A stretch of 64,000 nucleotides of DNA, taken from NCBI GenBank assembly GCA_903813345.2, contig CAIIXF020000001.1:16821915-16885914 (forward strand). Direction: 5' to 3'. Under the pieces are notes generated by a model. It was not told the DNA's origin. It saw only the letters and a program-made list of their open reading frames with translations, and did no database searches. This document shows positions 17,701 to 46,259 of this stretch, piece after piece. The first letter of the stretch is position 1, and each line of letters opens with the position of its first letter. This DNA is from Owenia fusiformis. Its lineage: Eukaryota; Annelida; Polychaeta; Sabellida; Oweniidae. The position numbers and the translations under genes were made by a program.

Positions 17701-20700
17701 AGAAGAATTGAATTGGTGGTGCAAGCTACATATGATTATGAATTAAAAGCTAAGGGTAACTTAGGACCAGACTAACAGATTAGAGATTATGACCTTTTAA
17801 ATAATATAATATAGCCTTTGTACTAGTGGTGCTTGAATGTCAGTGCTCACCACTCACTCATTGAACCTGTCCAAGATATTTGCTTGAGTACATTTTTTAA
17901 ACTTGAGTAGGCATGTTTTATTAATACCCCGAAATGATCATTTTTGTTATCACTGAATGGAATAAAGTCTCGATTCAGGAAACAAACTGAACATTTTTTA
18001 AAAATCAACAAACACCAATATGGCATAAATAATTATATGTCTGGTCATTTAATTGATACAAATTATTAGAACATCGATAGTAGTTAGGAGAGTGGCTAAA
18101 ATACTATTTATTTGGTCTTCGAACAGTCTTCTGGGTGAATTTTTAATTTTATCAATTTTCCCTCATTTTTGCGAGTGTCCCTTGATCACAGTGAGATTTT
18201 TACACTTTCTACTTGAGTGGCATTTTTCATGGGAGTTGCAGTACTAATATGTACATGCTTTTAGTTTGACTAATCAGATGATCATTTTGATGTTTTCAGA
18301 ACATAACTGACATCTCTCAGTTGGTTCCTACTGGTGAAAGTACAAGACTGTCATTTGCTCAAGGCCCAGCTTCCCAGTCACAACACAGTCAGGATCATAC
18401 GAAACATAAGGATCTAGAAAATCAAGAAACTGGGGAAGAGTCATTCAGTAAGCCAGGTATTAATTATGATTTTAAGTGGCAATATATGGTGAAAGGTATT
18501 AAATTGTTGTTGTAATTTCAAAATATATGTAAATTATTGAACACATAATTCTGAAGCAAACTACACAGGGGGAATGTGTGAAAACTTCTATTTTACATGT
18601 AGAATTGAGCATTATGTGCTAAGTCTGCTAAGTTTGCTAAGTATGTTGCTTTTTGGAGAAATTGAAATATTAAGAATTCATACTCTTTATCCACGGTTGT
18701 TAGAACATGTGTCTAGAATCAAGATTCTCTTTAACATTCTTATTTTATGTTTGCAGGACCAAAGTCAAAAACGAGAAGAAAGCCAAAACAGAGCCACAGA
18801 GTCCTTAGAGTGAGAAATTCATCTTTAAATTACCAGGAAAATCAGGCCATAGATATGTCACCAAATGATCAAAATGATAAAACAGAAAGAGAACCTGCCT
18901 GGAAAGAAGTGAGTAAAACATTTGAAGAACAAAGAAAGAGACGATTAAGCTCAAAATCTAGAAAATCTACAATAATACAATCTGTTATTGAGGAAGTCTC
19001 TGCCGAAGCCATAGAAGTAGATCCACATGATAGACACACTGAGAAAAATCATTCAAAGTCAGATAGATCTAACAATGAAGACGATGCACTACAACAGAAT
19101 GTTGATGATAACGAGCAAGATAAACTTAATGAAGAGGAAGCTGTACCAAGTGTTAACAATGAAAAGACCATTGAATCTGATGCTGCTGAAATGGGTTCTA
19201 CAGGTGGAGATATAAGCGGAGAAGTGTCTAATGATAATCAGGAGACTAAGAAGGGCAATGGTAGCGATGAGAATGAAAGATCTGAAGATGCTTCACAGAA
19301 AGACAACATGCTTTCCTTAGATACAAGCAGACAAGTGCAACATAATACAAACAATTATGGAAATGATGGTAATGATGACAGTGACAACAATGATGAGCAA
19401 GATGACATTATACAAAGAGGACAACAAAGGAGTACAAACAATCAAACAAAAACATCTAAAAGGATGGATTATTACAAATCAATGATAAGCCAGCTCAGTT
19501 CACCAAAAGTACAAAAGGGACCAACACAAGGAGGTGTTGGTAAGAGAACAGATTCTGAGGGCCCTGAGAGCCAGGATATCGAGGCTCCTCAGACCTATGA
19601 CACACCAGAGAACAAACATACTGATGAAGAGATGAATAACAAAGGTGATGAAGCTGAAATGAATCATGAAGTTGATAACAATGAGATGAATGATATAAAT
19701 GATGAGGTTAATAATGATGAGATAAGTGACAGTGAACACAGTGATGTGGAACAAAAAGAAAATGAAAAAGATGAACATGAAAATGATGATGATGTTCAGA
19801 TGTTGAATAAACAAAATGAAAATGATGATGACATGAATAAGGATGATGTGGATCAAATTCCAACAGTGAAAGCATCAAAAATTGCCAATCAGAGAGATGT
19901 AGAATCACATAATGAAGAAAGTGTAAACCATGTGAAAAAACAAAGGAAAACTAAATCGAGACAAAAATCAGGAAAATCAAAAAGTAACACAAAGGATGTT
20001 AACCTAAGTTCAAATAATCAAACTCCCGCAAAAAATGCAATTGATGAAGTGTTAACAGAGGAGTCTAAAACACAAAATATGGATGAACAACAGTTTCAAA
20101 TGTCAAATAAAGACTTTACCTCACACACAAAGGGACAAAAAGCTCAAGCTAAGAAAAAAGCAAAGCACTCAAGAAGAGAGGACATTAATGATGTTGAAGA
20201 TGTCATTGAGTCTAGTAATATGGTTCCAAGGACTGAAGATGTTCTCCAGAAAGGTAAGGAATAAAATCCCAGGCTTGTTTGAAATAATCTTAGAGGATAG
20301 AATAGCTGGATCAGATATCTTGATATTGGAGATCCTACAAAACAATTTACTTATGGTTCATTTTGGAGCAATCAGATTTTTTCACCACGTGAGCCCACTA
20401 ATGGAGTCACTTTCTATGACTTGTGTTTTGCATGAATGACAAGTGTCTGTAACAATTCTTGCATTTTTATAACCATTCATAAGTAGTGATATTTTATCAG
20501 ATAAATGTCTTGTTGGGATTTGGTGCTTTCTGGAATTGAACAGTTTTGAGCCAGTTGAGACAAGTAATCTTTATTAGTACATAATACATTAAAACTTGTA
20601 GGAAAAAGAGGAGACAAAGATGCTGGGCGGATGAAAAGCAAGGATGAAAGAAAGAACCAACTGGAAAACTTAACAAAGATTGATTCATCTATGGTATGAT

Positions 20701-23700
20701 TAATATTATTACACTGTATCTGAAGCATAGTCTTAAGATATTTCGGTTCGGGATCTATGTTTGCACCTCATCAGATTGTTGAGAAAAGACTCTTTTGAAC
20801 TATCTTGACACAAGAAAGATATCAAAAGTCTCATAGGCAGTAAAAGTCTAAAACAGCTCCAAGATTATAAGTTACCTAGTTCTAAATCATAGAAATTTAA
20901 CAAATACTCTTTAAATGGAGGTTTTAGTTATTCTTTGAATCCCTGTTTTATGAAATTTTTTGTCCTTTTCCAATGACTTTTAAGTTTTCTGGAAAATGCA
21001 GGGCTCAGTCCCAAAATGGCATAATGAAAAATCTTTGAGAATTGATTTACTCTTTCATTGATCACACAATTTAGGTTAAATCACAATCTAATGTGCATGT
21101 CAACAAGATCATCTAGTTGCAAGCAAATGGAACTTTGTATTCATAAAGTTTGAAATGTTGGAGAAATTAAAAAATAAAGTAACTTATCCATTTCTCCAAG
21201 TAAAGATATGATATTCTGGCACAACCAAAACTACGAGTGTCATCTATTAATCCATTTATATAGCAAGTCTTCTTGTAATTGTAATATATAAATTGTAGGT
21301 GTACAAGAAGCTAAAGAGAGAAGTAGTGAAAGGTCTGGCAGAATGGCATCCTGATGTGGTAGCAAAAGAACTTGCAAGATCTAAAGCATTATGTATGTAT
21401 ATATTTATTTTTCCCTTGCATGTACTAATACCAATACAATATTTACACACATGATATAATAATCATAATATTTGATGCCAATATAATATACAAATATAAT
21501 AGTTCAAGTAATAATTCAATACAAAAACACACAATAGGCTTACATGTATTCAACTCAATTCAATCCATACATGTATTCAAGCAAGATTTAGATCTGTACT
21601 CCAAATGTTTTATTTTATCAATACTTGTGAAATGTACAAACATTTTGTAGCTGCTTTTGTATCAGTAAAACTGAAAATAGCACTTTATAGACACACCAGG
21701 TACCAGGTAGCAGTATAAAAAAAACTCAGAACCATTCTCTCATATTTTTACTTATGTTACAACTGTTTTTTGACTGACATTTTATCAAGCTTTGTCTTGA
21801 CTAATATTTGGATCCTTCAAAAGAGTTTGCACAAATATCTTTAACTATGAGAAAATGAACCAATCTTGTTCACTCTATTATACCTTTCATTTGGTGTTCA
21901 TGAGCAACCAATTTGGTTTATTAGTAATGATTATGTTATTTGTTTTTATGTGTCTGTTCCTGATTAATGGTTTATTATCCCATCGAACGAAGTTCGGAGG
22001 GATATAGGGAACGCCTCCGTCCGTACGTACGTCCGTCCGTCAGTCCGGGCAATAACTCAAATACCGTTGGCCCGATTTTGTTCATATTTTGTACACATAT
22101 ACCCTATGGGGTTAGAAGTTCTGCTTGAAAGCCGATTTTCAAAATGGCCGCTCATTTCAAAATGGCGGCCATTTTAGTGCCGATTTTACAGTAATTTAGG
22201 TGCAATATGTAAAACTGTAATAGCAATATGTTTTAAATGTAAAAAAATTATAAAGGGCATTAATAATGCTACAAATGTAGATATTAAAGAAGCACATGGC
22301 AGCCATCTTGAAAAATGGCGGCCTTTACTCGTCATATTACGATTTTTGCTATAACTCAAAAAATAGTGGAGCGATTTTGTTCATATTTGGTATGTGAATA
22401 CTATAAGCATTGGACATTGTGTAAAGACACTTTTGGTAGAAGGCGGCCATTTTGAAAAATGGCCGCAATTTTGAAAAATGGCTGCCATTTTAACGTATTT
22501 TACTATAACTCGAAAAGTAGTGGAGTGATTTTGTTCATATTTGGTATGTGTATACTATAAGCATGGCACACTGTCCTATGACACTTTGGGTAGAAGGCGG
22601 CCATTTTGAAAAAAATTTTGAAAAATGGCCGCCATTTTAACATATTTTACTATAACTCGAACAGTAGTGGAGCGATTTTTTCATATTTGGTATGTGAATA
22701 CTAAAAGCATAGCACACTGTCCTATGACACTTTTGGTAGAAGGCAGCCATTTTGAAAAAAATTTTGAAAAATGGCCGCCATTTTAACATATTTTACAATA
22801 ACTCGAAAAGTAGTAGAGCGATTTTGTTCATATTTGGTATGTGAATACTATAAGCATGGTACACTGTCCTATGACACTTTTGGTTGAAAAATGGCTGCCA
22901 TTTTAACGTATTTTACTATAACTCGAAAAGTAGTGGAGCGATTTTGTTCATATTTGATATGTGAATACTTTAACCATGGCACATTGTCTAATAAAACTTT
23001 GGGGACTCGTCGGCCATTTTGAAAAATGGCCATCATTTTTATGTGTGTTATTTTACAAGTACGTGTGCGATTTTTCAAAAATTTTAGAGGTGGCTACTTA
23101 AAAGCATATTATTTCTTCTGATGACAACTTGGCTAGTGAGCAACCATTTTGAAAATGGTGGCCTTTCTGGTGTGTTGTTTTATGATATTTGCTATTCGTT
23201 TGTAAAAATGCCAGCCATTTCTGTTCGATGGGATTCGCTACGCTTTGGCGTTGCCGTTGTTCTGGTTAGATGTCTGTTAGATGTTATATGGTACTTCCAA
23301 AAATATACTAAACAATACAATTAGACAAACAGAGTATCTTATGCATTTGGTCAAAATCAACAGTGACATCTTATATCAATATTTCCCATCTTCCCATCCC
23401 ATTTTCTGGGATGTCACAGAATGACCCCAAAGGGCAAACATACTTGGTATTATCTTGAGACATCTTCATTCAAGACATAACCTAATTTTATGAAGTTATC
23501 AATGTTCTCCTATGTGTTAATAAAGTATTAGAAGATATGACTGGAAACAAGACTTCAGTAATTTGGTTTGATATATTACATATACATGCAATGAATGATC
23601 ATAAAAAACATAATGAAGAATCGGAAAACAGTATTACACAAGTTATATGCATCAGTGCATTTAGACATGGTGAAAATAATGCTTTGCTAGGTATTGCTAG

Positions 23701-26700
23701 ACATTCTATTTCAAGATGAAATAATAGATGAGAAATCTAACAGGTACAAATAGTTTATTTATACAGAATGTTACAACTTTTGTTCAGAAGTTAAGAAAAA
23801 TATCTCCCAGAAATTCAAAATGGCAGACACTTTTAATGTTTAAAATTTCTTTTTACTGCATGCCAGTTAGTCTATAACCAACAGGGTCTAAAAGGTTTTG
23901 AAAGCAAGTTGAAAAAAACTTTTTGACCTTTTTTACCTTGAGAAGGTCATTGAAAGTCAAATCTAAAGTCAGACTTAAGCTTCTGAGAACTTGTGGATGA
24001 TGTTGAAATAAAAATTGGTCAATTTGAAGCAAGTTGAAAAAATACCTTTTTGACTTTGAGAAGAATACGAAAATAGTACTTGGCTTTTGGACTACGATAC
24101 AGTACTCAGAGAAAGGTGATAAAAATAAGTAGCAGTGACTGGCAGATCACATGTTACCTTGATTCTTAGACTACTTATTTCACCATCTGGAATTCTATTT
24201 TAATCAACAAATCCTCTATTTGATTCAATGATCTGTTTCCCACTTTTTGTGGTAAGGATATAGAGGAAGCTTAAAGACCTTGAACACCCCAAATAAAACA
24301 TCTTCTTCACTGTGAAAGGATATTCATCATTCACATATTTTGGGTCATAGAGAATGATCACCCTATCTTCTAATCCTTTGAATCTTTGTACGCTATCAAC
24401 TGTTAAGCAACGCCCCCCTTTCGCTTTTTCTTCAGCATTTTGGACAGTTATTTGATTCATTTGTTGTAAAAATGCATCAACCGTTTTTTGGGATTGCAGG
24501 AGAACAGTTATGTCTTCTAGCTCATGTGATTCATTTTTTAGTTGTTTTAATAACCAAACCAATGCCTTGAAATTGTCTAAAGATGTTTGGCTATGAGTCT
24601 CAATTTCAACTTTTGGCCCTTGCACTCTATGTCCAATTGTGATTTCCTGCCCATATGATGTGTCTTGATATTTAACACATAGATTATAAACCTCAACAGA
24701 CATTCTCATAACCTTTGTTAGTGTTACCACTTTACACTGCCTATCTGCAACTTTGTCCTGAACTACATTACCATTGCTCATTAATTGGCTTCTGTCACAA
24801 AATACCCAAAAAGAGCCTGGAAGATTTTTTGGCTCCAGCGCTCTTGCTTGAAGTAGCTTTAGCCAGTCCTCTTCAAAATCCTGGCCTTCATCCACAAATA
24901 CATGTGTGTATGTCTGCATGCGATGTATTATTTTGAGTAAAAAACTCAACTTTGGACGACTTGGATAAATTTCTGTCGCCTTTATAAGGTCCTCTTTTAA
25001 GGCTAAATCACGAACATAAGTTAATACTGTTTTTACTGTTACTTTTAGTATGGCATTGTTCCTCATATACGTGTCCAACTTTTCAACAATTGCCATATTC
25101 CAACATAAAATCAGGACAGAGTCATCTGGGTTGAACTCCTTTATCATTCTCACCTTTAATTCCAGCAGTTGGGTCTTACCGGATCCTGCAGGCCCTTCTA
25201 TGTACAACATCCTTCTAGTATCCATTAGTAGTTTCAATTGTTCCGGCGTCATCAGAAGCCACTTTTCTGTTTTAGCGGAAATAGCTGCTACAGCCTGACT
25301 CCTGGATGCTGGAGGTTTTGTTATATCTCCTGTGTACACCAAGTGTCTGATGTATATATAGCTGTAAATACAACATTGGGTTAAGGGAGCAGATTTATAG
25401 ATTTGGATTCAACAGATTGAAAGTTATGACAATGGCCAGCCTTTGTGACTCTGGACATTTTGTCTGAAATGCATTGAAAGTTTGTCCCAACCTAGACCAA
25501 ATATGTCTCACCTTCAACCAGAATCAGTATAGTCTGAAATTGGTTCTAAGGGAATTCTTGTGTTGTTCTAGAAGTAGTTTTAAAGTTTCAAATATTGTTA
25601 CAATGAGTATCAGAAGGAGATAAATGTGTCTGTGATCCTGACTAAAAATTCAAATGTCTCAGGCCATAAAAATTATGGAAGATGGACTAAAAATGGGTCA
25701 GGATTCAAAAAATTTGTTAAGGTTCAGAAAATCAGAATGAGTACTCGAGTCAAGTTGTACAGTAAGTGAGGCACTTATCTTCTGCAATACTTGGTGATTT
25801 TAATAATTATTATGATATATATGACTTGCATACCTTTGAATAAGAAGCTGGAAATGTTTGTCACTCATGGGTTCCATATTGTTGGTTGTTTTACTCCACC
25901 AATCCTTAAATGCTTCATCATTTACAACATCTTTGTGCTGCAGGTAGATGTATTTTTGGTCCTGCATTGAGGCTGGCAGTAGGTCAGTATTTGGTGTTGA
26001 AGCTACCAGTTGTATCTGTAGGTCTTGTTCAACAATTCCTACCACTCTTTGGATTACTTCTCTGTGCAATTTCTCATCTTTGTCTAATTGATTTTTGAGG
26101 TCTTTCACCTTTCTTTTTATAGGTCTACTCACTATTCTTTCCTGTTGACCAGCCACAGCTTTAACCTGTATGCAAATGACACCTCCTCCGTGGATTATAA
26201 AAAAGTCTGATTGTCCACTTTTATCATAATTCAAATTGAGCTTTTTTCGCTCTAGTGCTGTGAAAACATCTGTGAAATCCAGATCCCTCAATATGACCAT
26301 TGGTTCATTAAGGTTTTCTAATCTTTTGTAAATGATATGTTCCGCATCATCCCCTCTTGTGAAGTCATCACGAAACTTCCTTCGTTTGGTCGCTGGTTCA
26401 AACTCCTCTCTATAGATGAACATAGGTGGAACCATCAATGGTTTTTTCTCAATTGTGAAATGTTTGTTGTAAAACATAGCTGCATCTTCATGAAACGTTT
26501 CTTTATTGTCTAAACCAAGTCGACTAGGTATAGCTTGTAAAAGATCTATTAACAAATCTATATTAAAATCCTGTCTTGTCTCTTCTGTAGCCATGATCAC
26601 CCTTTTGATGGAAATAACCAAGTCTTATATACCTGAAACACATGAAAGTCATGAGGTTATTTAGACAGAAATATTGTTATTGGTAAATTAATGGTGGGAC

Positions 26701-29700
26701 CCTTAGTGGGATTGTTCCAGATGAGGGGAGAGGTGCTAGGATGTATGTGGTGGAAGAAATGAAACTTGTGCTATCTCTTTGCCATGCAGCCCCTGCCCTG
26801 TCTATTCAGTTACATTGACCAATTACCAACAGCTACAAAAATGATGCTGTTATTGAAATTGATACACATTGATTGTATTTTATTACTTTATCCCAATGAA
26901 GGTCACTGGTCCAAAGAAGATGATACTAAGTTAGTCTCATCCAATATGTTGGATAAAATTCATTCAATGTTGATAAACTTTTGATTCCAGTTAATCAACT
27001 TACATCATGATCCATGTATTTGTTTTGGTTTATATCGCAGCTCAATAAGGTGTGTATTAAAGATTAATTTAATCTCAAAATCTGCATTGAACTATACCAT
27101 TGGATTTATATGGGAAATTTCTCCAAGAGAACATTCTAGGGATTAAGGAATGGGTACCATTTACACAATTTGAGAAATTATTGGCATACATGGAACCTAT
27201 TTAAAACAGCATTTTATTTTATATTATTCAAAAGAGTTTGTGATCAATGATTTCCAGCCCTCTGAAGTTTGAAAAATAACAATACCTGGGTGTTGATCTA
27301 GAGATTATTCTTGAAAATGAGAAAAGAATTGGGGGATTATATGGTGCAGTCTTATGGTCAATAACATGTTTTAAAGTGTATTGATATTTTTTAGATGAAA
27401 AACACAAGTGAAATGCATGAAAAAACTCCCCCAATTCATTCTACAAACAACTTGCAGTTCTTTGTGGAAATTCATAGATATCTCTCTCTAATTTCTGTCT
27501 TTTATTATCTGCAGATCAAGGGTACATGGTGTATTATATTGTGGCATATACAGAGGTGTTATTGTGTAATAAACGCATTATTACATGATGTAGAGTCACT
27601 AGAGTGTGATATATCAAATATCACCACCCTGAAAAAATATCACACTCAGCTCTGCCTCATGTGATATTTTATTCCTTGAGGTGATATTTCGATATATATC
27701 ACACTCTCCATCATGTAATAATGCTATAAGTACGAAATTCATGAAATGCTTGCCTCAGTCTTCATGTTCACAGACTTCATGTTTATTGCATCATGCCATA
27801 ACCTAAGTTATGAATTATCTTTGAAATAATCTCTAAAAGTAAGAAGAAATACATGTACTTACCTCATTTACAAAACCAAAATTCCCATCTTCTTTGGAAG
27901 GCGCGTAAATTGTGATCTTTGTACTTTGAACCTCTACGGCTTCTCTATTTGTTTACAGTAAATCCAAATGAGAGGTCACAGCAACCCTAACTTGTGAAAT
28001 TTAGTTGTAAGCCTAAATGTAACATGATCTTCAGCATAATATGTTCATGAACCTTACTATAGCTTGTTGCCTTGCAATAACCAGCATCAAAATGGCTGCC
28101 AGTCGGGCTCAAGATACTAGTTTGTTTAAGTTAAATGGCTTAAATTTGCCCATATAGTTCAGTTAGACATTCTTAAGTCTAATTTCACAAGATATCCTCA
28201 GTGTATCTAATTATCTATCAAAGCTTGTAATTGATGAAATCAAGAAGATTCTGATCATTGTCACTTGCTGCTAAATAGCCAGATTAACCCGTAATTTAGG
28301 TCAACAATTTGGTGATACACTACAGGTACCAGGATACACTGCTGGTACTATTTATATTGAAATGAGCTTATTATCAAATTGCAATCAACGAGCTCGTAGC
28401 CGAAAAGTTGCATTCGTGAATACAAGTGAAGTCTTACTAGCTTGAGCTGTTGTGAGGTTATGTCAACATGCATTTTGTCTGTTAAGTGGAGATAGAGCAG
28501 GCAGGATAACACTCTATATATTCAAACATGCCCGTAGCCAGCCTTTGTTAGGAGGGGGGGGGGGCTGTAACAAACAATGCCCAGTAATGCCAGTTATGTT
28601 ATCTAATTGCCCATTCTATGTGGGGAGTAGCAGATTTTGCCCCCAATTTTTTTCAGGGCCCTTTAGGCCCTGTTCAATAGCTTATATTGAGGGGTTCTTA
28701 AATATCAAAATAACAGTCTAAGTTCTAGTTCTTTATTCTACAGTATAAGATGTATTTTACAGTTATGTCCTATAAAGAATCACTTGATATAATTTAGAAG
28801 TCTTAAAGTAAAACGTGAAGCTGAAGTAAGAGTGTGAAGGAAGAAGCAGGCTGAATCGTTGTGTCTCACTATTATACCTCTCATGACATGTGAGTGGTAC
28901 CTGGGTACCAAACTGGGACTTGGGATCTGAGATACAACTGGTACTTAGGACTTGGGTACTGAGTTACAAACTGGGACTTGGAAGTTGGAAGGTGTAGATA
29001 CTAAAAAGGGGGGGGGGGGGTGTAAATCCTTGACAATATAGACAAGTTAATTTTGACTGTTTATCAAAAGAAATTGGCACTATTACATTATACATACATA
29101 CATACATATATACAGTATATATAATACATATATCACCAAATGTTACCTTCTCCCTCATTATAGAAAGAAAAAAGGTAGATCCACATTTTTATGAGATATC
29201 AACGAGGTTAAATGAGCCCCCATCCCCTGGATACGGGGCTGATAAGTGATTTGAAATCTCATGTTGACATCCTAAACCTGATATTACAGGGTGACCCCAA
29301 AAAAATGCAACCCTCCATTTCTTCAATATTTTTCTTAAGTGGAGGTTAATTGCTCTGAAATTTGGCACACAAGGACTTCATTCAATGTGGGATCCTCTGG
29401 CAAAGTTTCAATAATCATAGTCTTATATTGATAGAGTTATGGTCGTTCCAAAATATGCTCCAAATGTCGTCCATTTCCAATATTAGGTTTTCGGATGAAT
29501 CACATTCCCTTCTTTCTGAACATGCAAACTCAAGAAATAATGTGTTCTAGGATCACAAATTCCAGATGAAGTGCTTCAAAGGCCCGTTCATTCTGTTAAA
29601 TGCACAGCTTGGGCTGCCAATTTCCAAACATGAAATCATTAGCCCCTTTTGGTTTGAGGTTGATAATGGCAACACTGTTACTGTTAACACACAGCGCGAT

Positions 29701-32700
29701 ATTGGCGTTCCAAGGAAGTTCTAGGCAGTTCTAGAGTGACATAGAGGCTTCAATAGACAAGAACAGTGGTTCTAGAAGGATGGCGCTACTCCTCACACTT
29801 CTAATGATAGCATAGCCTGGCTAATATGTATATTATTGAGAAAGCACAAAGGAAACATTTAAAAACCTGTAAAATAATGAATAGATATAACCTAAAAAGA
29901 AAAAATGAAATGAAATTCATGACTCATTTTGTACTATAACTACAGTAAAACCTGCGAACAGGGAATGCTCTTGGGACTGGAGGAACGTTTCCTTGTTCAG
30001 AGGTTTTCCCTATAGAGAGGGGCCACACTTTCAGCAAACTCAAACTTGCCGAATAAGCATATTTGTATATGCATGTAAAGAACTGAATTTCAAGTTTCAT
30101 CAACCCCATTTTATATCATTGATAAACTAGAAGTTTGGATCAGTAAAAGATTTAAAGAGATTTGGCTCAACATGACACATGTACTTATCTGTTATCTCCA
30201 TAAAAAATTGTGTCAGTCCCTAGATTATTTATGTTTGTTGAAAAGAAGAATTAGTGTCATGATAATAAGTAACAGATTAGTATTAGTTATCCCATCGAAC
30301 GAAGTTCGGAGGGATATAGGGAACGCCTCCGTCCGTCCGTCCGTCCATCCGTACGTACGTACGTACGTACGTCCGTCCGTCCGTCTGTCCGTCCGTCCGG
30401 GCAATAACTCAAATACTGTTGGCCCGATTTTGTTCATATTTTGTACACATATACCCTATGGGGGTAAAAGTTCTGCTCGAAAGCCGATTTTCAAAATGGC
30501 CGCTCATTTCAAAATGGTGGCCATTTTAGTGCCGATTTTACAGTAATTTAGGTACAATATGTAAAACTGTAATAGCAATATGTTTTATGTGTAAAAAAAT
30601 TATAAAGGACATTAATAAAGCTACAAATGTAGATATTAAAAAAGCACATGGCAGCCATCTTGAAAAATGGCGGCCTTTACTCGTTATTTTAAGATTTTTG
30701 CTGTAACTCGAAAAGTAGTTGAGCGATTTTGTTCATATTTGGTATGTGAATACTATAAGCATGGCACACTGTCCTATGACACTTTCGGTAGAAGGCGGCC
30801 ATTTTGAAAAAAAATTTGAAAAATGGCCGCCATTTTAACATATTTTACTATAACTCGAAAAGTAGTGGAGCGATTTTGTTCATATTTGGAATGTGAATAC
30901 TATAAGCATGGCACACTGTCCTATAACACTTTTGGTAGAAGGCGGCCATTTTGAAAAATGGCCGCCATTTTAACGTATTTTACTATAACTCGAAAAGTAG
31001 GGGAGCAATTTTGTTCATATTTGGTATGTGAATACTATAAGCATGGCACACTGTCCTATGACACTTTTGGTAGAAGGCAGCCATTTTGAAAAATGGCTGC
31101 CATTTTAACGTATTTTACAATAACTCGAAAAGTAGTGAAGCAATTTTGTTCATATTTGGTATGTGAATACTATAAGCATGTCACATTGTCTAATGACACT
31201 TTTGGTAGAAGGTGGCCATTTTGAAAAATGGCTGCCATTTTAACGTATTTTACTATAACTAGAAAAGTAGTTCAGCGATTTTGTTCATATTTGGTATGTT
31301 TCATATTTTATATGTTAATACTATAAGCATGGCACATTGTCTAATGACACTTTGGGTAGTAGGCGGCCATTTTGAAAAATGACCACTGTTTTTACTATAA
31401 CTTGAAAAGTAGTGAAGCGATTTTGTTCATATTTGATATGTGAATACTCACGAGCCTTGCACACTGTCTCATGACACTTGGATAGTAGGCGGCCATTTTA
31501 AAAAATGATTTTATAGGTGGCTACTAAAAGCATATTATTTCTTCTGATGACAACTTGGCTAACCATTTTGAAAATGGTGGCCTTTCTGGTGTGTTGTTTT
31601 ATGATATTTGCTATATATTTCGTTTGTAAAAATGCCAGCCATTTCTGTTCGATGGGATTCGCTACGCTTTGGCGTTGCCGTTGTTCTGGTTTTAAAATAA
31701 ATCAAGGTAATTAACAGTGGGTGGGATGCTACATCTTGTAAACAATTGGCTTATCTTAATCTCATTCATATTAATCCAAGCTTTTTAGAATCATATATTG
31801 GCTTAAGACTTCCACACCTGGAAGTCTTAAACAATGGAATATACAGTGTCATCAATATTCAATATTCCTTGTTCACAGGTGAATTTTCATACTTTGCCCC
31901 AAAATAGTGTTCCTTGTTCCCTGTTCACAGGTTTTCCCTACAGAGAGGGTCCGTTAACATGTAAGGCAACGGAAGAATATTTGTTTATTTTGAAATGCAT
32001 TCCTTGTTCATAGGTTTTCCCTACAGAGAGGTATTCCATCGGACAGGTTTTACTGTAGTTACAATAATCTTGATTTGACTTTTTATGTCACCAACACAAG
32101 TGGTGACATATTATGGTGACATACTGTTATAGTCTCCAACTTTTTTATGGATGGTGTTCAGGGTTTGGTTCAGTTGTTGGGGTTTGGCACTTGATGTTTA
32201 GTGTCTGTAACAAATGGCTGGTACTGACATTTTGCATGTTAATGCCCTGTATGAAAATTTTGTGATGACCTAAATACATATATTTAATAAGTATACATTT
32301 CCAGTTAAAGAGGTAAATGCAAAATATCCCTGAATGTATGGAATGTATTTTCTATCTTAGAAAACTTTAATTAATGTTTTGTCTTTTCATATTTTTCAGT
32401 GAAAATGGTGAAGAAACTTGTTAGGTCCAACATGAGCAACGAGTACAAAGATAGTAAGTATAAAACACATAATCGTTGCTTAATTTAGTTGAAAATTGAC
32501 TATTTGTATCTGAACTAATGCTAATGCTGGTAATTTGTACCATTGGCCATGGCACCTACTTTTGCCTTATTTTTGAAAAATAAGCTGTTTGATACCAAAA
32601 TTCTATGATCGCCTAGATAAACTCCAGAAACAAACAGCTTTAAATAAGGATAAACTTTCTCATACTTCTCCCCTATTCAAAGTTTAAAAAATGTTAAATG

Positions 32701-35700
32701 TTTATGATGTTAACAGATATTCCATTGCTCAGTTCATATATAAAATCTTTAATGGGAGTCAGGACTCGTATAGATGGCAGATAACTATTAGGTTGTTCTT
32801 CTCATCTGGCCCATTGGTTTGTGTGTAAATATTGCTGTTTTAAAACTTCAAATTCACTACACATATCAAATAAATATCATATTTTCCTTCATTATTATTT
32901 AAAAACATGTTTTAAGATTCAAAATCAAAGGTCTTTGGATATTTTCAATCACATTTATCTTGGGAGATTTTTGGAGCAATTTTTACATGTCAAAGTATGC
33001 TATTAAACCCACTGAATTTTTCGCCATCTATTGACAGTCCTGACCATGAGAGCCCATTGAATGGTGCCATTTTAAACTCTAAAAGGTTACTCATTTGACC
33101 TTTAGCATACAATGTGAAAGTCACATTTTCTCAAAAATTCTTTCAGGTACAAATGCATGAAGCATGTAGGTGTATAAAATATACCGTTTAGCAGATTTGA
33201 TTTAAATTTTATGGGCTGATGCCTGGGGTAAAGAACTGTTTTTGAGAAGGAATTTTCAAGATGGTCAGTGTTCACTCAGTTCAAAGTGGCTACTAAGTAC
33301 TACAGAAATAAATGTAATATTTGATAGCTTACCAGTTGATGGCTTTAGTTCAAATTTTATATGCTGGTGCCTTAGAAATTTTCAATATGGCCTCTGAATT
33401 TAATAGATAGATTAAACATGGTATGGTAAACATATAAGTCAAAATGACTTGATGTTGTTTAGCAAGGCAGATATAATTAATTGAATGTGTAAGATTGAAA
33501 ATCAAATCAGTATCATTTTAATGTATTTTCAGGTAATCGTCTCTTCCAGCTACTAAAATTGAGATGACAACTTGTTGGTAAAATAACATTGCTGGTGGTG
33601 AAATAAAATTATTGATGGTGAAATGACATTGCTGGTGGTGAAATAAATTATTGATGGTGAAATGTCATAGCTGGTGGTGAAATAAATTATTGATGGTGAA
33701 ATGACATAGCTGGTGGTGAAATAACAAAACTGGCTTTGAAATGACATTATTGGTGGTGAAATGACATTGCTTATGGCCAAATGACATAGCTGGTGGTAAA
33801 AGAACATTGCTGGTGGTGAACTGACATTTAAAGAGCAGGGACATTGCCAGGCCATGAGCATATACAGGGTGACACCGCTGGTCGTTGTTTTTTCCTTTGA
33901 TTATCTCATAAATGTCATGATCAAGTTCATTTTTGGTACAAGTGTACATAAGTCAATGGATGACATCATTTAAAAGTGTGAAATGTCAATTTTCTTCTAT
34001 TTTATTTGATGAGTATAACAGGACATGCTCCATATGTGCTCACTGGTACTAAAAACAAACTTCAATTCTGCGCTTAAAATCACTGATCACTTTGACACAT
34101 TCCTCAACCGTAATAGCTCATATTGCTAATTTCAGCCCAGGAGGAGCAGGATGAGGTTTGTTTTTGTACACATTATCCTTTAGTAGGCCCAAAAGATGAA
34201 AATCTAGAGGGTTTAAGTCAGGACTGTGAGGGGCCCATATATTGGAACACCACCTACTGATCAATATAACTCCAACCTTGCACTGTGTAGCCCCATCTTA
34301 CTGGAACCACTGCTCATTTCGTAGAAAGTATGCCGAGCTTTGAGAGTGCAACCAAAGCTGTACATTTTTTAACCAGAGATTTGATTCTTAGACTACAATC
34401 CTTGGATATCTATCCAAGGAAATGGTATGTTTGAACCTTGCCATGATTTTGAATCAGACATGACATTAGACGCCGTAATTTTGGGATGTGAAATGACACA
34501 TGATACACTGGGATATGATATAGTGATATGATAGTGATTTCTTCGACATGATATGATATTAGCTTATACAATATTCTACATTGATGAAACTTGATACATA
34601 CTGACTTCTTCGACATGATATGTCATTAGCTGATATGATATTCTACATTAATCAATTGATTCCCCTGACATGATATTATTTAATATTATATGATATTATC
34701 TAATATAATATGATAATGAGACTTGATATATAGTTATAATACTGATCTCTTTGACATGATATGATATTATTTAATATGATATGATACATTAATGGGACTT
34801 GATCCATAGTGAAATAATACTAATTTCCTTGACATAATATGATATTATCTAATATGATACGCTACATTAATGGGACCTGATATACAGTCAAGTGATACTG
34901 ATTTCTATGATATGATATTATCTTACCTGATATGCTACATTATTCCTATGGTATGATATGATATTATCCAATATGATATGCTACATTAATGGGACTTGAC
35001 ATATAGTCAAATGTTACTGATTTCTATGACATGATATGATATTATTTAATATGATATGTCACATTAACGGGACTTGACATATAGTCAAATGTTACTGATT
35101 TCTATGACATGATATGATATTATTTAATATGATATGTTACATTAATGGGACTTGATATATAGTCAAATGATACTGATTTCTATGACTTGATATGATATTA
35201 TCTAATATGATATGCTACATTAATGGGACTTGACATATAGTCAAGTGATACTGATTTCTATGACATGATATGATATTATCTTATTTGATATGTTACATTA
35301 ATGGGACTTGATATATATTCAAATGATACTGATTGCTATGACATGATATGATATTATCGAATATGATATGTTACATTAATGGGACTTGATATATAGTCAA
35401 GTGAGACTGACTTCTATGATATGATATGATATTATCGAATATGATATGTTACATTAATGGGACTTGATATATAGTCAAGTGAGACTGACTTCTATGATAT
35501 GATATTATCTAACATGTTGATATGCTACACTATTTCTATTACATGGCATGATATGATATCATCTTACTTGATATGCTACATTAATGGGACTTTTTATATA
35601 TTCAAATGATACTGATTGCTATGACATGATATGGTATTATCGAAAATGATATGCTTCATTAATGGGACTTGATATATAGTCAAATGATACTGATTTCTAT

Positions 35701-36357
35701 GATATGATATTATCACACATAACATGCTACAGTATTCCTATGACATGATATGATATTATCTAATATGATATGCTACATTAATGGGACTTGATATAAAGTC
35801 AAGTAATACTGATTTCTATGACATGATATGATATTATCTTACATGATATGGTACATTATTTCTATGACATGACATGATATTATCTAATACAATATGCTAC
35901 ATTAATGGGACTTGATATATACTGATTTCTATGACATGATATGATATTATCTAATATGATATGCTACATTAATGGGACTTGACATATAGTCTTGTGATAC
36001 TGATATGACATGATATGATATTATCTTACTTGATATGCTACATTAATGGGACTTGATATATATTTTTTAAAATGATACTGATTGCTATGGCATGATATTA
36101 TCGAATATGATATGCTACATTAATGGGACTTGATATACAGTCAAGTGATACTAATTTTATGATATGATATTATCTTACATGATATTCTACATTATTTTTA
36201 TGACATGATATGATATTATCTTACTTGATATAAGTTGAAAAGTTGTACATAAAATTGTTGCTTTCAAAGCACACTTATCATTCTGTTACTAGGCACCAAG
36301 TCCAAATTACGATATGATTTAGTGTGCAATGATGAAGCTTTACATGCTTATTTGATG
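14714..36357 (+). CDS. Gene A: charged low-complexity, probably nuclear protein, unrecognised (7-8 exons)
   Basis: Exons 14714-14735, 17180-17337, 18300-18456, 18757-20253, 20602-20693, 21299-21392 and 32400-32453, with a possible eighth at 36293-36357, join with perfectly matching phases into about 713 residues without a stop. I do not recognise the family. Seen: a basic N-terminus (MPPTKRKS, then SKRLRSLRDTL); a segment SPLTPKIGLSLLQRMANKM that looks like a short amphipathic motif after a proline-directed TP site; about 500 residues very rich in Asp, Glu, Asn, Lys and Ser without hydrophobic clusters (disordered); and a more ordered, helical C-terminal part with VYKKLKREVVKGLAEWHPD and ELARSKAL. 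There is no signal peptide or membrane segment. Composition and basic patches suggest a nuclear, chromatin- or kinetochore-type scaffold; this is inference. The 11-kb intron after 21392 contains the nested nuclease-helicase gene and two HINE-like repeats. The 3' end is unresolved and the gene could instead continue into the gene B exons. Confidence 0.7.
14736..17179. other. Gene A intron 1
   Basis: Contains the foldback repeat at 15538-16076 and CpG-bearing unique DNA at 15000-15180. No exon supported. Confidence 0.5.
15538..16076. repeat. Large inverted repeat (foldback), arms ~190 bp
   Basis: 15538-15735 is the reverse complement of 15890-16076 with modest divergence, enclosing about 155 bp. 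Both outer ends carry the palindrome GGACTATAGTCC. A third copy of one arm lies at 13960-14160. It sits in gene A intron 1 and would form a very long hairpin in the transcript. Confidence 0.8.
17180..17337 (+). CDS. Gene A coding exon 2
   Basis: Acceptor GTTTCAG, donor GTAAGT after CAT. It encodes about 52 residues, basic at first and then SPLTPKIGLSLLQRM. The reading frame is open upstream of an internal ATG at 17191, which could act as an alternative start if exon 1 is not used. Confidence 0.75.
18300..18456 (+). CDS. Gene A coding exon 3
   Basis: Acceptor GTTTTCAG, donor GTATTA. It encodes a Gln/Ser/His-rich stretch (ASQSQHSQDHTKH) with no recognised domain. Phase 0 in, phase 1 out. Confidence 0.75.
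18757..20253 (+). CDS. Gene A large exon 4, Asp/Glu/Asn-rich
   Basis: A 1497-nt exon with acceptor TTTGCAG and donor GTAAGG. Basic at its start (KSKTRRKPKQSHR, RKRRLSSKSRKS), it then turns into a long acidic, asparagine-rich region with many EMN, DDDN and NDE runs, and becomes Lys-rich again near the end (KSRQKSGKSKSN, KKKAKHSRRED). GAT/AAT-rich codon runs make it repeat-like, but the single 1.5-kb open frame bounded by good splice sites argues for a real exon. Confidence 0.85.
20602..20693 (+). CDS. Gene A coding exon 5
   Basis: A 92-nt exon with acceptor CTTGTAG and donor GTATGA, phase 1 to phase 0. Lys/Asp-rich, ending LENLTKIDSSM, the beginning of the helical C-terminal part. Confidence 0.75.
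21299..21392 (+). CDS. Gene A coding exon 6, helical segment
   Basis: A 94-nt exon with acceptor ATTGTAG and donor GTATGT. It encodes VYKKLKREVVKGLAEWHPD followed by VVAKELARSKAL, a predicted amphipathic helical pair and the least disordered part of the protein. Best target for a remote-homology search. Confidence 0.75.
21978..23267 (+). mobile_element. HINE/Helentron-like non-autonomous element, copy 1
   Basis: Starts A/TCCCATCGAACGAAG and ends CGTTGTTCTGG/T. After the 5' box comes a short CCGT/ACGT microsatellite, then a unique block (GGCAATAACTCAAATAC...), then about six ~135-bp core units each holding an inverted GGCGGCCATTTT / AAAATGGCCGCC pair, then GTTCGATGGGA (reverse complement of the 5' box), then a stem GC-ACGC/GCGT-GC and an 11-nt tail. 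This matches the plan of non-autonomous Helentrons (DINE-1, bivalve pearl/CvA). It lies in the gene A intron. Confidence 0.75.
24200..25361 (-). CDS. NERD-helicase coding exon 2 (SF1 helicase domain)
   Basis: 1162 nt from acceptor TTTACAG to stop TAA (24202-24200). It holds a Q-motif-like MTPEQLKLL, then the Walker A, DEGQD, RFKGLE and GCSRS motifs in order. At about 385 residues it is shorter than full UvrD, so the 1B/2B insertion domains are probably reduced. All ATPase motifs appear intact. Confidence 0.88.
24200..26594 (-). CDS. Nested gene: NERD nuclease-like domain fused to UvrD/Rep-type SF1 helicase (2 coding exons)
   Basis: Exons 26594-25834 and 25361-24200 (donor GTATGC, acceptor TTTACAG, phase 2) join into about 640 residues ending in TAA. 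N-terminal part: GDDAEH at 81-86, SGQSDFFII around Asp130, and CIQVKA at 141-146, the layout of a NERD PD-(D/E)XK nuclease, but with Gln143 where most members have Glu (Mrr-type enzymes also use QxK). C-terminal part: Walker A GPAGSGKT at 310-317, Walker B VFVDEGQDF with the DEGQD box at 411-415, a motif-V-like VDSVQRFKGLEDRVIIL near 575-591, and a motif-VI-like YLGCSRS near 610, the order of UvrD/Rep SF1 helicases. Expected role: ATP-driven translocation on DNA or RNA coupled to cleavage. The start is the ATG at 26594; the frame extends 9 codons upstream only to a TTG. The gene lies wholly within a gene A intron, on the opposite strand. Confidence 0.85.
25834..26594 (-). CDS. NERD-helicase coding exon 1 (NERD domain)
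   Basis: 761 nt from ATG to donor GTATGC. It encodes an acidic helical leader, a basic patch TKRRKF, the NERD-like core and a Lys/Glu-rich helical connector (VKDLKNQLDKDEKL). The open frame runs 34 nt beyond the donor before a stop, so the splice join is inferred; it is supported by matching phase and by joining a nuclease to a helicase, a known pairing. Confidence 0.82.
27572..27726. mobile_element. Palindromic short element
   Basis: GCATTATTACATGATG at the left is the reverse complement of CATCATGTAATAATGC at the right, with inner inverted GAGTGTGATATAT / ATATATCACACTC and GATATTTCGATAT. About 150 bp, in the gene A intron just upstream of the nested NERD-helicase gene. Confidence 0.7.
27863..27960 (-). 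promoter_or_regulatory. Putative non-coding first exon / promoter of the NERD-helicase gene
   Basis: On the minus strand a strong donor (GAG followed by GTAAGT, exon edge 27863) could splice to an acceptor TTTCAG whose exon edge is 26632, just before the start codon at 26594. The DNA around 27895-27940 is locally richer in CpG (GGCGCGTAAA on the plus strand). A short upstream ORF (MGILVL then stop) lies in this exon. Inference from splice signals only. Confidence 0.4.
29286..29830 (+). pseudogene. Degenerate Tc1/mariner-type transposase fragment
   Basis: A terminus-like TACAGGGTGACCCC begins at about 29285. Downstream, broken frames carry RFSDESH (first catalytic Asp, 29494-29496), a WAAISKHEIISPFWF segment, and a WF-stop-KDGATPH motif (second catalytic Asp near 29779), about 95 codons apart as expected for the superfamily. 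Frameshifts and in-frame stops make it inactive; the third catalytic region is not seen here. Confidence 0.75.
29941..30060 (+). repeat. Left part of a pogo/Tigger-like element (CTTGTTCAGAGGTTTTCCCT type)
   Basis: Begins TACAGTAAAACCTGCGAACA. It has partners at 31855-32058, which end in CAGGTTTTACTGTA, the inverted terminus. The two halves may be one element split by HINE-like copy 2 at 30290-31690. Confidence 0.5.
30290..31690 (+). mobile_element. HINE/Helentron-like element, copy 2
   Basis: Same architecture as the copy at 21978, with a longer microsatellite (30331-30399, CCGT and ACGT units) and about seven core units, one of which has an internal duplication near 31290-31310. Ends at CTGG followed by T. 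It lies in the same gene A intron, upstream of the nested minus-strand gene. Confidence 0.75.
31855..32058 (+). repeat. Right part of a pogo/Tigger-like element
   Basis: Has two copies of AGGTTTTCCCTACAGAGAGG and ends CAGGTTTTACTGTA. Pairs with the terminus at 29941. Confidence 0.5.
32083..32245 (+). repeat. Short interspersed repeat, TGTCACC type, copy 1
   Basis: Starts TATGTCACCAACACAAGTGG, with AGTCTCCAACTTTTTTATGG inside and a common end GTAACAAATGG ... TTTTGCATGTTAATGCCCTG. Shared with the copies at 53240, 56073 and 57582. Confidence 0.65.
32400..32453 (+). CDS. Gene A coding exon 7
   Basis: A 54-nt exon with a good acceptor (ATTTTTCAG) and donor GTAAGT. In phase with 21392 it encodes KMVKKLVRSNMSNEYKD, continuing the basic helix. 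It leaves in phase 1, which fits either 36293 or the gene B exon at 46090. Confidence 0.65.
33570..33830 (-). repeat. Diverged tandem repeat (GGTGGTGAAATGACATTGCT type)
   Basis: About twelve imperfect units of about 20-22 bp. They create a spurious His/Phe/Thr-rich reading frame on the minus strand. It adjoins the transposase relic. Confidence 0.8.
33862..34330 (-). pseudogene. Degenerate Tc1/mariner-type transposase fragment, opposite strand
   Basis: On the minus strand a WFQ-stop-DGAT motif (34313-34281) is followed by SPDLNPLDFHLLG (34240-34190) and VYKNKPHP, the block around the last two catalytic residues of Tc1/mariner/IS630-type transposases. The left edge at 33862 has the terminus TACAGGGTGACACC, close to that of the plus-strand relic at 29286. 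Inactive. Confidence 0.75.
34480..36235 (+). repeat. AT-rich satellite array, ~78-bp unit, about 20 copies
   Basis: The unit contains GATATGATATTATCTAATAT, GCTACATTAATGGGACTTG and AGTCAAATGATACTGATTTC. The left 300 bp are more diverged and shortened; units in the middle are well preserved, with some truncations. Almost no CpG and rich in GATAT palindromes. Located between gene A exon 7 and its possible exon 8. Confidence 0.92.
36293..36357 (+). CDS. Gene A possible exon 8
   Basis: A 65-nt open segment between acceptor TGTTACTAG and donor GTAAGG. Read in the phase left by 32453 it encodes TKSKLRYDLVCNDEALHAYL. It sits in the short unique gap between a satellite array and a LINE insertion. It leaves in phase 0; reading on into 46090 in that phase meets a stop within six codons, so if real it points to another downstream exon or to an alternative transcript. 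Confidence 0.4.
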
Positions 36358-36630
36358 GTAAGGCTCTGTATGGTAACTCTTGTCAGAATTGAATTATTCT
36401 ATTATATCCTTCACTATAATTATAGTAGTATGGTGAATGTATGTATCATTATAGTTATATTTTGTGTTTTATGGTTCATCTATGCAGAGAGATCTTGATC
36501 TGCATTGTATGCCCCTCCCATTCTTGCATGATGTGTGATACAGTATTTTCGCCTCCACTCACCACTTCCCACTCCCCACCCTCCAGCATGGTCAATTATA
36601 TCTTTGATCCTGGATAATATCAATACTGAT

Positions 36631-39716: not shown

Positions 39717-40208
39717 CAAAAATCTCCAATTAGCTATTCACTTATGCTGTCTACCTAGTAGCTATTGTTATCGTTCTTTCTTTTTCTGCTCATTGTTTTT
39801 ATTCCATCATCTAATTGGCAAAGCCAACATATATCATCGCCTATCATTTTTCAAAGCACTTAACCTTATTCGAATATACTGCTCAGAGACTGTAACTGGC
39901 AACCCAGTTTACTTTCCATATTGTTAAGACCATGCTGACGGGTGGGGGATGGGGGTGGGGAGTGCGAGGCTGGAGATACATAATTTACACAACACTGCTT
40001 GTCATGTTCATCTTCTCTGTGCGGATAATATGCCCATTAGGGTGTCATCCGCCTTATCTGTATGTTTCGCCAGATGTTTGAAAATAAATAAATGAAATGA
40101 AATGAAATGAAATGAGGCATTGTATCAGACTCATTGGAAATTCCATGCACATAACTTGAACAAAGAAGCTGGGTACTATGAGTTTGTGTACATGTACTTT
40201 CGTTATTA

Positions 40209-46089: not shown

Positions 46090-46259
46090 TCCGATCAGCC
46101 AACATGAGCTCTGGGAAGTCTAACCAGAAGCGAACTCCACAGACAAAGCGGAATAAGCTACGGTTTGAAGATGCTATACCAGTGTCTAAGCGTACTAGAC
46201 GATCTGGCCCTATTGACACCATTCTGGCTAATGACCCAGTCTTGCCAAAGAACTTCAAG
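46090..46259 (+). CDS. Gene B exon 1 (coding from ATG 46104)
   Basis: Acceptor TTGTTTCAG at 46089, donor GTAAAT after 46259. The internal ATG at 46104 is followed by SSGKSNQKRTPQTKRNKLRF and DAIPVSKRTRRSG. The 14 nt before the ATG are also open in the phase left by gene A exon 32453, so the exon could be internal. Confidence 0.75.

What the first reader, a model, noticed from the sequence alone, without database searches (positions are those of the whole stretch)
24200..26594. Animal gene fusing a NERD-type nuclease-like domain to an SF1 helicase, nested in an intron
NERD domains fused to UvrD-like helicases are best known from bacteria. Here the fusion is a spliced nuclear gene with intact ATPase motifs and a PD-(D/E)XK-like core. 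The position usually held by Glu is Gln (IQVK), so it is either an Mrr-like QxK active site or a nuclease kept only for binding. Possible roles are DNA repair, processing of foreign DNA or RNA, or control of mobile elements; the surrounding repeat load makes the last idea attractive but it is inference. It may be an old transfer from bacteria later given an intron.
Basis: partly seen in the sequence, partly recalled or inferred. Interest (0 to 1): 0.72.

Follow-up and report, generated by a model that had tools for sequence, protein, structure and literature searches.

The report
Eukaryotic cousin of anti-phage nuclease-helicase
A spliced gene in what looks like an animal genome encodes a complete relative of a nuclease-helicase that bacteria often keep beside anti-virus genes, with one altered residue in its cutting site, so it may be an old borrowed defence or nucleic-acid-processing enzyme.

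Summary
The core observation holds. Exons 26594-25834 and 25361-24200 (minus strand) join in frame through a GT-AG intron to a 640-aa protein. NERD and AAA_19 both pass Pfam cut-offs, and the protein aligns along its length to PADLOC's RT-associated NERD-helicase profile (E 1.9e-20, residues 84-626). The SF1 motif residues checked are intact. The NERD half models with PD-(D/E)XK topology and keeps E85, D130 and K145; position 143 is Gln, where 39 of 40 relatives with a residue have Glu. PD-QXK sites occur in Mrr-type nucleases, so activity stays open. Relatives share about 21-32% identity; 19 of 42 sit beside DISARM- or Druantia-type genes, a biased sample. The helicase half is structurally nearest to human Schlafen 11. 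The branch is very long and unplaced: no recent transfer from a sampled group, no donor. Best reading: an old eukaryotic member of the bacterial NERD-helicase family, probably an ATP-driven translocase with a variant nuclease acting on foreign or aberrant nucleic acid. Function, expression, species and nesting are inferred. My paper searches found no animal NERD-helicase.

The parts
25834..26594 (-). Exon 1: residues 1-253 plus two bases of codon 254; N-terminal extension (about 1-79, partly low-confidence) and NERD domain (about 80-240)
   Evidence: Open frame; join; Pfam NERD 80-163, 24.7 bits against cut-off 22.1; AF2 model of residues 1-253
25362..25833 (-). Intron of 472 bp, GT..AG
   Evidence: AAG|GTATGC and TTTACAG|C; bridges the frame change between the two open frames; no RNA support
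24200..25361 (-). Exon 2: last base of codon 254, residues 255-640 and stop; compact SF1 helicase
   Evidence: AAA_19 30.7 bits against 25.1; AF2 mean pLDDT 83, pTM 0.84; Foldseek best match SLFN11, E 1.2e-17
26340..26342 (-). Codon of E85 (first helix of the nuclease core)
   Evidence: E in 38 of 38 relatives with a residue there, 42 aligned; helix 80-93 in the model
26205..26207 (-). Codon of D130 (strand 128-135)
   Evidence: D in 38 of 38 relatives with a residue there, 42 aligned
26160..26168 (-). Codons of Q143-V144-K145, the variant [E->Q]xK motif at the end of strand 138-144
   Evidence: Relatives: E in 39 of 40 with a residue, P in one (L027); K in 39 of 40, Y in L027
25172..25195 (-). 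Walker A / motif I GPAGSGKT, residues 310-317
   Evidence: G310, A312, G313, G315, K316 in 42 of 42; T317: T in 39, S in 3
24878..24892 (-). Walker B / motif II DEGQD, residues 411-415
   Evidence: D411, E412, D415 in 42 of 42; Q414 in 40 of 42
24368..24385 (-). Motif V RFKGLE, residues 580-585
   Evidence: K582 in 41 and G583 in 42 of 42; E585 in 36 of 42; aligned with the corresponding SLFN11 stretch in the printed alignment
24278..24280 (-). Codon of R615, arginine of motif VI (YLGCSRS); motif name recalled
   Evidence: R in 42 of 42 relatives

Best explanation
An intact, one-intron nuclear gene of a probably invertebrate animal that encodes a full-length member of the NERD-SF1 helicase family otherwise seen here only in bacterial genomes, plasmids and viral contigs. 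Shown by computation: architecture, intact SF1 motif residues, PD-(D/E)XK-type topology with E85/D130/K145 kept and Glu replaced by Gln at 143, and homology to bacterial proteins of which part lie beside DISARM- or Druantia-type genes. Inferred mechanism: the compact Schlafen-like SF1 core loads on single-stranded, damaged or foreign DNA or RNA and moves along it using ATP; the tethered NERD domain, with a Mrr-like QxK site, cuts or grips the strand, giving a cell-autonomous nucleic-acid surveillance (antiviral-type) or processing activity. I give about 0.9 to family membership, 0.4 to a defence-type role as the main one, and 0.5 to retained nuclease activity.
For: Frame-keeping GT-AG join and 640-aa frame; both Pfam domains over cut-off; PADLOC RTasNERD-Hel 1.9e-20 over residues 84-626 and NERD+UvrD profile 6.6e-13, and the same two profiles rank first and second for 4 of 4 bacterial relatives scanned; Selenomonas NERD protein 26.5% identity, E 5e-15; 29 bacterial and 7 viral-contig relatives; motifs conserved; model topology helix-strand-strand-strand-helix-strand with E85, D130 and Q143/K145 on the expected elements; many of the listed Foldseek PDB matches of the NERD half are nucleases such as Bax1, R2, McrC, Can2 and Bse634I (their PD-(D/E)XK fold is recalled); helicase top match SLFN11. 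DrmA- or DrmB-like ORFs lie beside 15 of 42 loci and DruE-like ones beside 4 of 42, the query ORFs being confirmed as DrmB (2 of 2), DrmA (2 of 2) and DruE (3 of 3) by PADLOC. NERD is listed for the defence systems Mokosh type I and Nhi-like in a table passage of PMC10952713. PD-QXK is described as a catalytic site of Mrr-type enzymes (passages).
Against: No RNA, protein or second species supports expression or selection. No relative sampled has Gln at 143, so the change may mark loss of cutting. Foldseek gives no match below 1e-3 for the NERD half in PDB (best 0.012) or in the viral library (best 4.5e-3), and the exon-1 model is only of medium confidence (mean pLDDT 72). The PADLOC profile of Nhi itself is not among the window protein's matches up to E 1. 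Bacterial neighbourhood need not carry over to a eukaryotic gene, and 23 of 42 loci showed no DrmA/DrmB/DruE neighbour in the stretch held. Tree placement is unresolved with a terminal branch of 2.58.
Confidence: 0.55

Rival explanations
1. Nuclease-dead derivative: the NERD domain lost cutting through E143Q and now only binds nucleic acid, while the helicase works in DNA repair, at replication forks or in RNA remodelling rather than in defence.
For: Glu in 39 of 40 relatives with a residue there and Gln in none; SF1 motif residues kept; profile A4 matches repair-type helicases such as UvrD, PcrA and DNA helicase IV.
Against: E85, D130 and K145 are all kept, more than a dead site needs; PD-QXK is a documented catalytic variant.
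Confidence: 0.3
2. A member of an ordinary, perhaps already annotated but unstudied animal gene family of ancient eukaryotic descent rather than a distinctive acquisition.
For: Long unplaced branch, so not a recent transfer from a sampled group; no eukaryotic proteome could be searched, so wider presence in animals is not excluded.
Against: The relatives found are bacterial or on plasmids and viral contigs, but those collections hold no animals, so this weighs little.
Confidence: 0.25
3. Non-functional or mis-modelled locus: two fossil open frames of a transferred or captured gene, not expressed.
For: No RNA data; the donor site GTATGC is an imperfect match to consensus; 12 residues at the junction have no counterpart in 6 of 6 aligned bacterial proteins.
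Against: Two long frames without stop, P about 8e-14 and 3e-9 by composition; motif residues intact in both exons; good start context.
Confidence: 0.08
4. Bacterial contamination or assembly error.
For: The homologues found are bacterial.
Against: Contains an intron; G+C of the exons (0.371, 0.377) lies near that of a neighbouring candidate exon (0.356), and the gene is CpG-poor like, indeed more than, the window (observed/expected 0.29 against 0.47); no near DNA match in the plasmid collection; protein identity to relatives only 21-32%.
Confidence: 0.02
5. Cargo gene of a DNA transposon or of a viral insertion.
For: A repeat copy (21976 to about 23264) ends about 1 kb from the gene's 3' end; the window is repeat-rich.
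Against: No convincing inverted repeats flank the gene (only 14-36 nt imperfect arms); the gene lies outside the repeat copies; no paralogue in the window; two viral-contig scans with its own exons found nothing.
Confidence: 0.05

Closest known systems
Bacterial NERD-SF1 helicases (PADLOC RTasNERD-Hel PDLC03813 and NERD+UvrD C3a187 PDLC01087; 'Nhi-like' by the NERD listing in PMC10952713)
   Same: Same two domains in the same order along the whole length; same SF1 motif residues; E85, D130, K145
   Different: Eukaryotic-type gene with an intron; Q instead of E in ExK; about 79-residue N-terminal extension; no operon; 21-32% identity
Schlafen group III helicase module (human SLFN11, SLFN14, SLFN5)
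   Same: Compact SF1 core; SLFN11 is the best structural match (E 1.2e-17, TM 0.66 on the query) and the best single-sequence PDB match of exon 2 (E 0.0043)
   Different: No Schlafen core nuclease domain among the Pfam matches; the nuclease half is NERD
Gabija GajB (UvrD-like helicase)
   Same: SF1 helicase of a defence system; PADLOC GajB profile 3.1e-8, residues 303-366
   Different: The match covers only the start of the ATPase; GajB works with GajA (PMC10952713 passage) and, as recalled, has no NERD domain
Mrr-type PD-QXK nucleases (EcoKMrr, MspJI, Type ISP enzymes)
   Same: Gln in place of Glu in the catalytic motif (passages)
   Different: Different family: the window protein matches NERD and no Mrr model among its 13 Pfam matches

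Membership tests
NERD domain (PF08378) | Score over Pfam gathering threshold | tested here: met
   24.7 bits against 22.1, E 3.4e-5; exon 1 alone 26.2 bits. Only modestly over the cut-off
NERD domain (PF08378) | PD-(D/E)XK topology | tested here: met
   AF2 helix 80-93, strands 100-106, 128-135, 138-144, helix 164-185, strands 194-200, 216-219, mean pLDDT 72; Foldseek matches are all above 1e-3, so topology is met but not confirmed by a strong structural match
NERD domain (PF08378) | E...D...ExK residues | tested here: not met
   E85, D130, K145 present but Q143 for Glu; a variant site
NERD domain (PF08378) | Nuclease activity | not testable with these tools
   Needs an assay
Bacterial NERD-SF1 helicases | NERD followed by one SF1 helicase in one protein, full-length alignment | tested here: met
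   PDLC03813 over query 84-626 and profile 17-513 of 519
Bacterial NERD-SF1 helicases | SF1 motif residues intact (Q295, Walker A, DEGQD, D443/Q446, R473, KG..E, R615) | tested here: met
   Columns
Bacterial NERD-SF1 helicases | Groups inside the bacterial family on a tree | tested here: inconclusive
   44-row tree, branch 2.58, no supported set holds it
Nhi proper | Match to the PADLOC Nhi profile (PDLC02372) | tested here: not met
   Not among the 12 families matched up to E 1; the same library lists that profile for 2 of 4 bacterial relatives, over the helicase part only
Schlafen family | Schlafen-type SF1 helicase | tested here: inconclusive
   Top Foldseek match SLFN11, phmmer E 0.0043; but profile A4 scores a chain labelled DNA helicase IV higher
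Schlafen family | N-terminal Schlafen core nuclease | tested here: not met
   No such family among the 13 Pfam matches up to E 1
DISARM / Druantia defence systems | Partner genes DrmA/DrmB or DruE beside the helicase | tested here: inconclusive
   None in the Pfam scans of the window frames searched, which cover 7 of the 17 frames of 110 aa or more listed; PADLOC was not run on the window's other frames

The most novel reading that the evidence does not exclude
An animal antiviral or genome-surveillance effector domesticated from a bacterial anti-phage NERD-helicase, active through a NERD PD-QXK site not seen in the sampled bacteria, and showing that the helicase half of vertebrate Schlafens and of bacterial NERD-helicases is one defence module paired with different nucleases in different lineages.
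Probability: 0.2. Interest if true: 0.82.

Novelty: new variant of a known kind. Interest (0 to 1): 0.52.

Why it matters
Some animal innate-immunity proteins (STING and viperin; title and start of abstract of PMC10732462, listing) share ancestry with anti-phage proteins. A eukaryotic NERD-helicase would extend that list to a nuclease-helicase class, give a natural test of whether a NERD E-to-Q site cuts, and bear on where the Schlafen helicase module came from. If the gene proves silent or purely a repair helicase, the interest falls to that of an odd gene transfer.

Tried and rejected
Whole-genome search for paralogues: no genome is held. tblastn to phages found nothing; to plasmids 13 records, at most 29.3% identity. 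Viral contigs: the 7-row alignment gave 600 candidate stretches and no confirmed relative; the exons alone gave none; the 3-row alignment gave 7 relatives of 264 stretches. Contamination, transposon cargo and decay were considered and set low. Mobile-element control was set aside for want of any link. Donor by tree: not resolvable (LG+G4 model; 9 of 42 relatives were left out as partial, non-NERD or near-identical: L017, L027, L029, L030, L032, L038, L040, L041, L042; of L043-L054 ten were added, L044 appearing to be the same gene as L008 and L048 being broken by a stop). Pfam on 8 candidate flanking pieces named only EF-hands, in 2 of 8.

Schlafen link, control runs: of three bacterial relatives searched singly against PDB, one (L012) gave SLFN11 at 2e-8 and SLFN5 at 1e-5 as its only matches below 0.5; one (P0001) gave a chain labelled DNA helicase IV first (1.2e-4) and SLFN5 at 0.91; one (L008) gave no Schlafen. 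The link is suggestive, not exclusive.

Literature: ten searches used. Searches (NERD domain, helicase, metazoa; nuclease-related domain, helicase, invertebrate; NERD domain, oyster) returned no paper. In the listings no title or abstract start names an animal NERD-helicase; I read passages only, of nine papers, and the NERD passages found in four of them concern prokaryotes. The other listed papers were not opened. The library lacks most subscription papers, and animal protein databases were not searched.

Full report
What is there. On the minus strand two long open frames, 26624-25800 and 25408-24200, join through a GT-AG intron (25833-25362) without losing the frame, giving a 640-residue protein. 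Stop-free runs of this length are not expected from the window's base composition. The start codon has a favourable context (A at -3, G at +4), and AATAAA lies downstream at 23759. tblastn of the window with the gene masked shows no second copy (three chance-level matches, E 0.56-0.90).

Domains. Pfam finds NERD at residues 80-163 (24.7 bits, cut-off 22.1) and AAA_19 at 303-451 (30.7, cut-off 25.1), with UvrD-type matches below their cut-offs. The most telling result is PADLOC: the profile of reverse-transcriptase-associated NERD-helicases aligns over residues 84-626 (E 1.9e-20), and a 'NERD+UvrD' profile follows at 6.6e-13. Those two profiles also rank first and second for the four bacterial relatives I scanned (E 6e-55 to 6e-98 for the first). 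The homology covers the whole fusion, not two separate domains. The PADLOC profile of Nhi is not among the window protein's 12 matches.

Relatives. tblastn against plasmids gave 13 records, the best a Selenomonas 'NERD domain-containing protein' at 26.5% identity, E 5e-15. In 301 genomes of one phylum and 297 of another I count from the printed listings 23 and 21 genomes with a match running from model position 20 or less to 489 or more of 589; about four candidates per genome were scored and the listings are cut, so these are lower bounds. Nearly all genomes match somewhere (300 of 301, 291 of 297), which I put down to other SF1 helicases. A patchy distribution is what defence genes show, by general knowledge.

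Active sites. Over 42 relatives (five pairs above 80% identity, four redundant rows), G310, A312, G313, G315, K316, D411, E412, D415, D443, Q446, R473, G583 and R615 are present in 42 of 42, and the window protein has them all. In the nuclease half E85 and D130 are present in 38 of 38 with a residue there and K145 in 39 of 40. At 143 the relatives have Glu in 39 of 40; the exception, L027, has Pro there and Tyr at 145 and does not look like NERD. The window has Gln. Gln at this place is known as PD-QXK in Mrr-type catalytic domains: Type ISP enzymes (PMC3874165, passage), MspJI and EcoKMrr (PMC12707154, passages). Cutting is therefore possible but not shown.

Structure. The exon-1 model (mean pLDDT 72, pTM 0.69) has the alpha-beta-beta-beta-alpha-beta order of PD-(D/E)XK nucleases, with E85 in the first helix, D130 in the second strand and Q143/K145 at the end of the third. 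Foldseek against PDB gives no match below 1e-3; the best, from 0.012 on, include R2, Bax1, McrC, Can2, BspD6I and Bse634I, nucleases whose PD-(D/E)XK fold I recall, among some unrelated entries. Against viral models the third match is named a nuclease-related domain protein (E 7.5e-3; best match 4.5e-3). The exon-2 model (pLDDT 83, pTM 0.84) is a compact SF1 helicase. Its best PDB matches are human SLFN11 (E 1.2e-17), then SLFN14 (7.2e-14), PcrA (1.6e-13) and UvrD (3.9e-13). With exon 2 alone as sequence SLFN11 is again first (E 0.0043; with the full protein 0.043). A profile of 32 rows, however, scores a chain labelled DNA helicase IV best at 2.6e-32, then mycobacterial UvrD1 at 1.4e-27 and SLFN11 at 1.7e-27. 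Of three bacterial relatives searched singly, one hit Schlafens first and clearly, two did not.

Neighbourhoods of relatives. From 121 neighbouring ORFs of 27 of the 42 loci I scanned 72. PADLOC tallies show one DrmB model in 7, several DrmA models in 6, DruE models in 3 and type II methyltransferase models in 3 of 72; only the first 25 of 145 families are printed and members are not named. With neighbour ORFs as phmmer queries over 308 ORFs of the 42 loci, DrmA- or DrmB-like proteins lie beside 15 of 42 loci (11 of 38 after collapsing near-identical loci) and DruE-like proteins beside 4 of 42, one of them (L010) counted through its own ORF used as query. PADLOC confirms the queries: L015 and L002 as DrmB, L019 and L041 as DrmA, L008, L010 and L020 as DruE. 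So 19 of 42 loci have such a neighbour and 23 do not in the stretch held. A plasmid relative has an annotated viperin-type antiviral protein with two genes between, another is next to a restriction subunit S gene. These loci were found with patterns from three sequences, one of them (L002) itself next to a DrmB gene, so the share is biased upward. The read passages of a paper on YprA-family helicases name PLD nucleases for DISARM and a NERD nuclease for the rare TALON system, not a NERD-SF1 fusion in DISARM (PMC12458937, passages). NERD is tabulated under Mokosh type I and Nhi-like defence systems in PMC10952713 (table passage). Nhi itself is summarised as a single-gene nuclease-helicase linked to phage single-strand-binding proteins (PMC12904381, passages).

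Origin. On a 44-row tree the window protein is on the longest end branch (2.58; median 0.8) and no supported set holds it. This speaks against a recent transfer from a sampled group and is compatible with old transfer, old vertical descent or fast evolution. No eukaryotic sequence other than those in PDB could be compared.

Setting. Plus-strand candidate exons at 18757-20253, 46099-46259, 50245-51163 and 61988-62050 have matching phases, AG and GT borders, and join without a stop, so the gene probably lies inside a 25.8-kb intron of a gene for a charged protein without a Pfam match over cut-off in the pieces searched. They were taken from a list ranked by codon bias trained partly on two of them. 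On the minus strand near 11 kb are EF-hand pieces. A frame with endonuclease and reverse transcriptase domains is at 36532-39450. No convincing flanking inverted repeats mark the gene as cargo.

Mechanism, with grades. Shown: fusion, motifs, topology, homology. From family knowledge: an SF1 helicase with these motifs hydrolyses ATP and moves on single strands. Inferred: that it recognises foreign or damaged nucleic acid, and that the QxK site cuts. The defence role rests on bacterial neighbourhoods and on the Schlafen likeness, both indirect. The main rival is a nuclease-dead remodelling helicase.

Verdict. It is a new variant of a known bacterial kind in an apparently animal genome. My ten paper searches found no description of an animal NERD-helicase, within the limits told under Tried and rejected; protein databases of animals were out of reach, so it may already stand there as an unnamed family.

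Noticed in passing
window 21976-23264, 30288-31688, 40207-41416, 42639-43684, 59881-61045 (right ends approximate): Five same-orientation copies of a 1.0-1.4 kb repeat that starts TATCCCATCGAACGAAGTTCGG and ends GTTCGATGGGATTCGCTACGCTTTGGCGTTGCCGTTGTTCTG (one copy GTTTGATGGG), with a GTCCGTCC tract and inner units spaced about 135-147 nt; the ends share a 12-nt inverted motif. No exact match of either end on the minus strand.
   Followed up: partly
window 36532-39450 +: 972-codon open frame with endonuclease/exonuclease/phosphatase and reverse transcriptase domains, by recall an apparently intact LINE-type ORF.
   Followed up: no
window 7907-8312, 6900-7328, 34710-36257: Tandem arrays with 42-nt, 19-nt and about 78-nt spacing; the 42-nt array is open in a frame on both strands.
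   Followed up: no
window 18757-20253, 46099-46259, 50245-51163, 61988-62050 +: Phase-compatible candidate exons of a highly charged protein; no Pfam match over cut-off for the first three (the last was not searched); identity unknown.
   Followed up: partly
L012:5371-6969: A cyanobacterial NERD-helicase whose only PDB sequence matches below 0.5 are human SLFN11 (2e-8) and SLFN5 (1e-5), which suggests shared ancestry of Schlafen and NERD-helicase motor domains; two other relatives did not show this.
   Followed up: partly
window 27561-27738: Nested short inverted repeats (36-, 22- and 14-nt arms) about 1 kb upstream of the gene, perhaps a small fold-back element.
   Followed up: no
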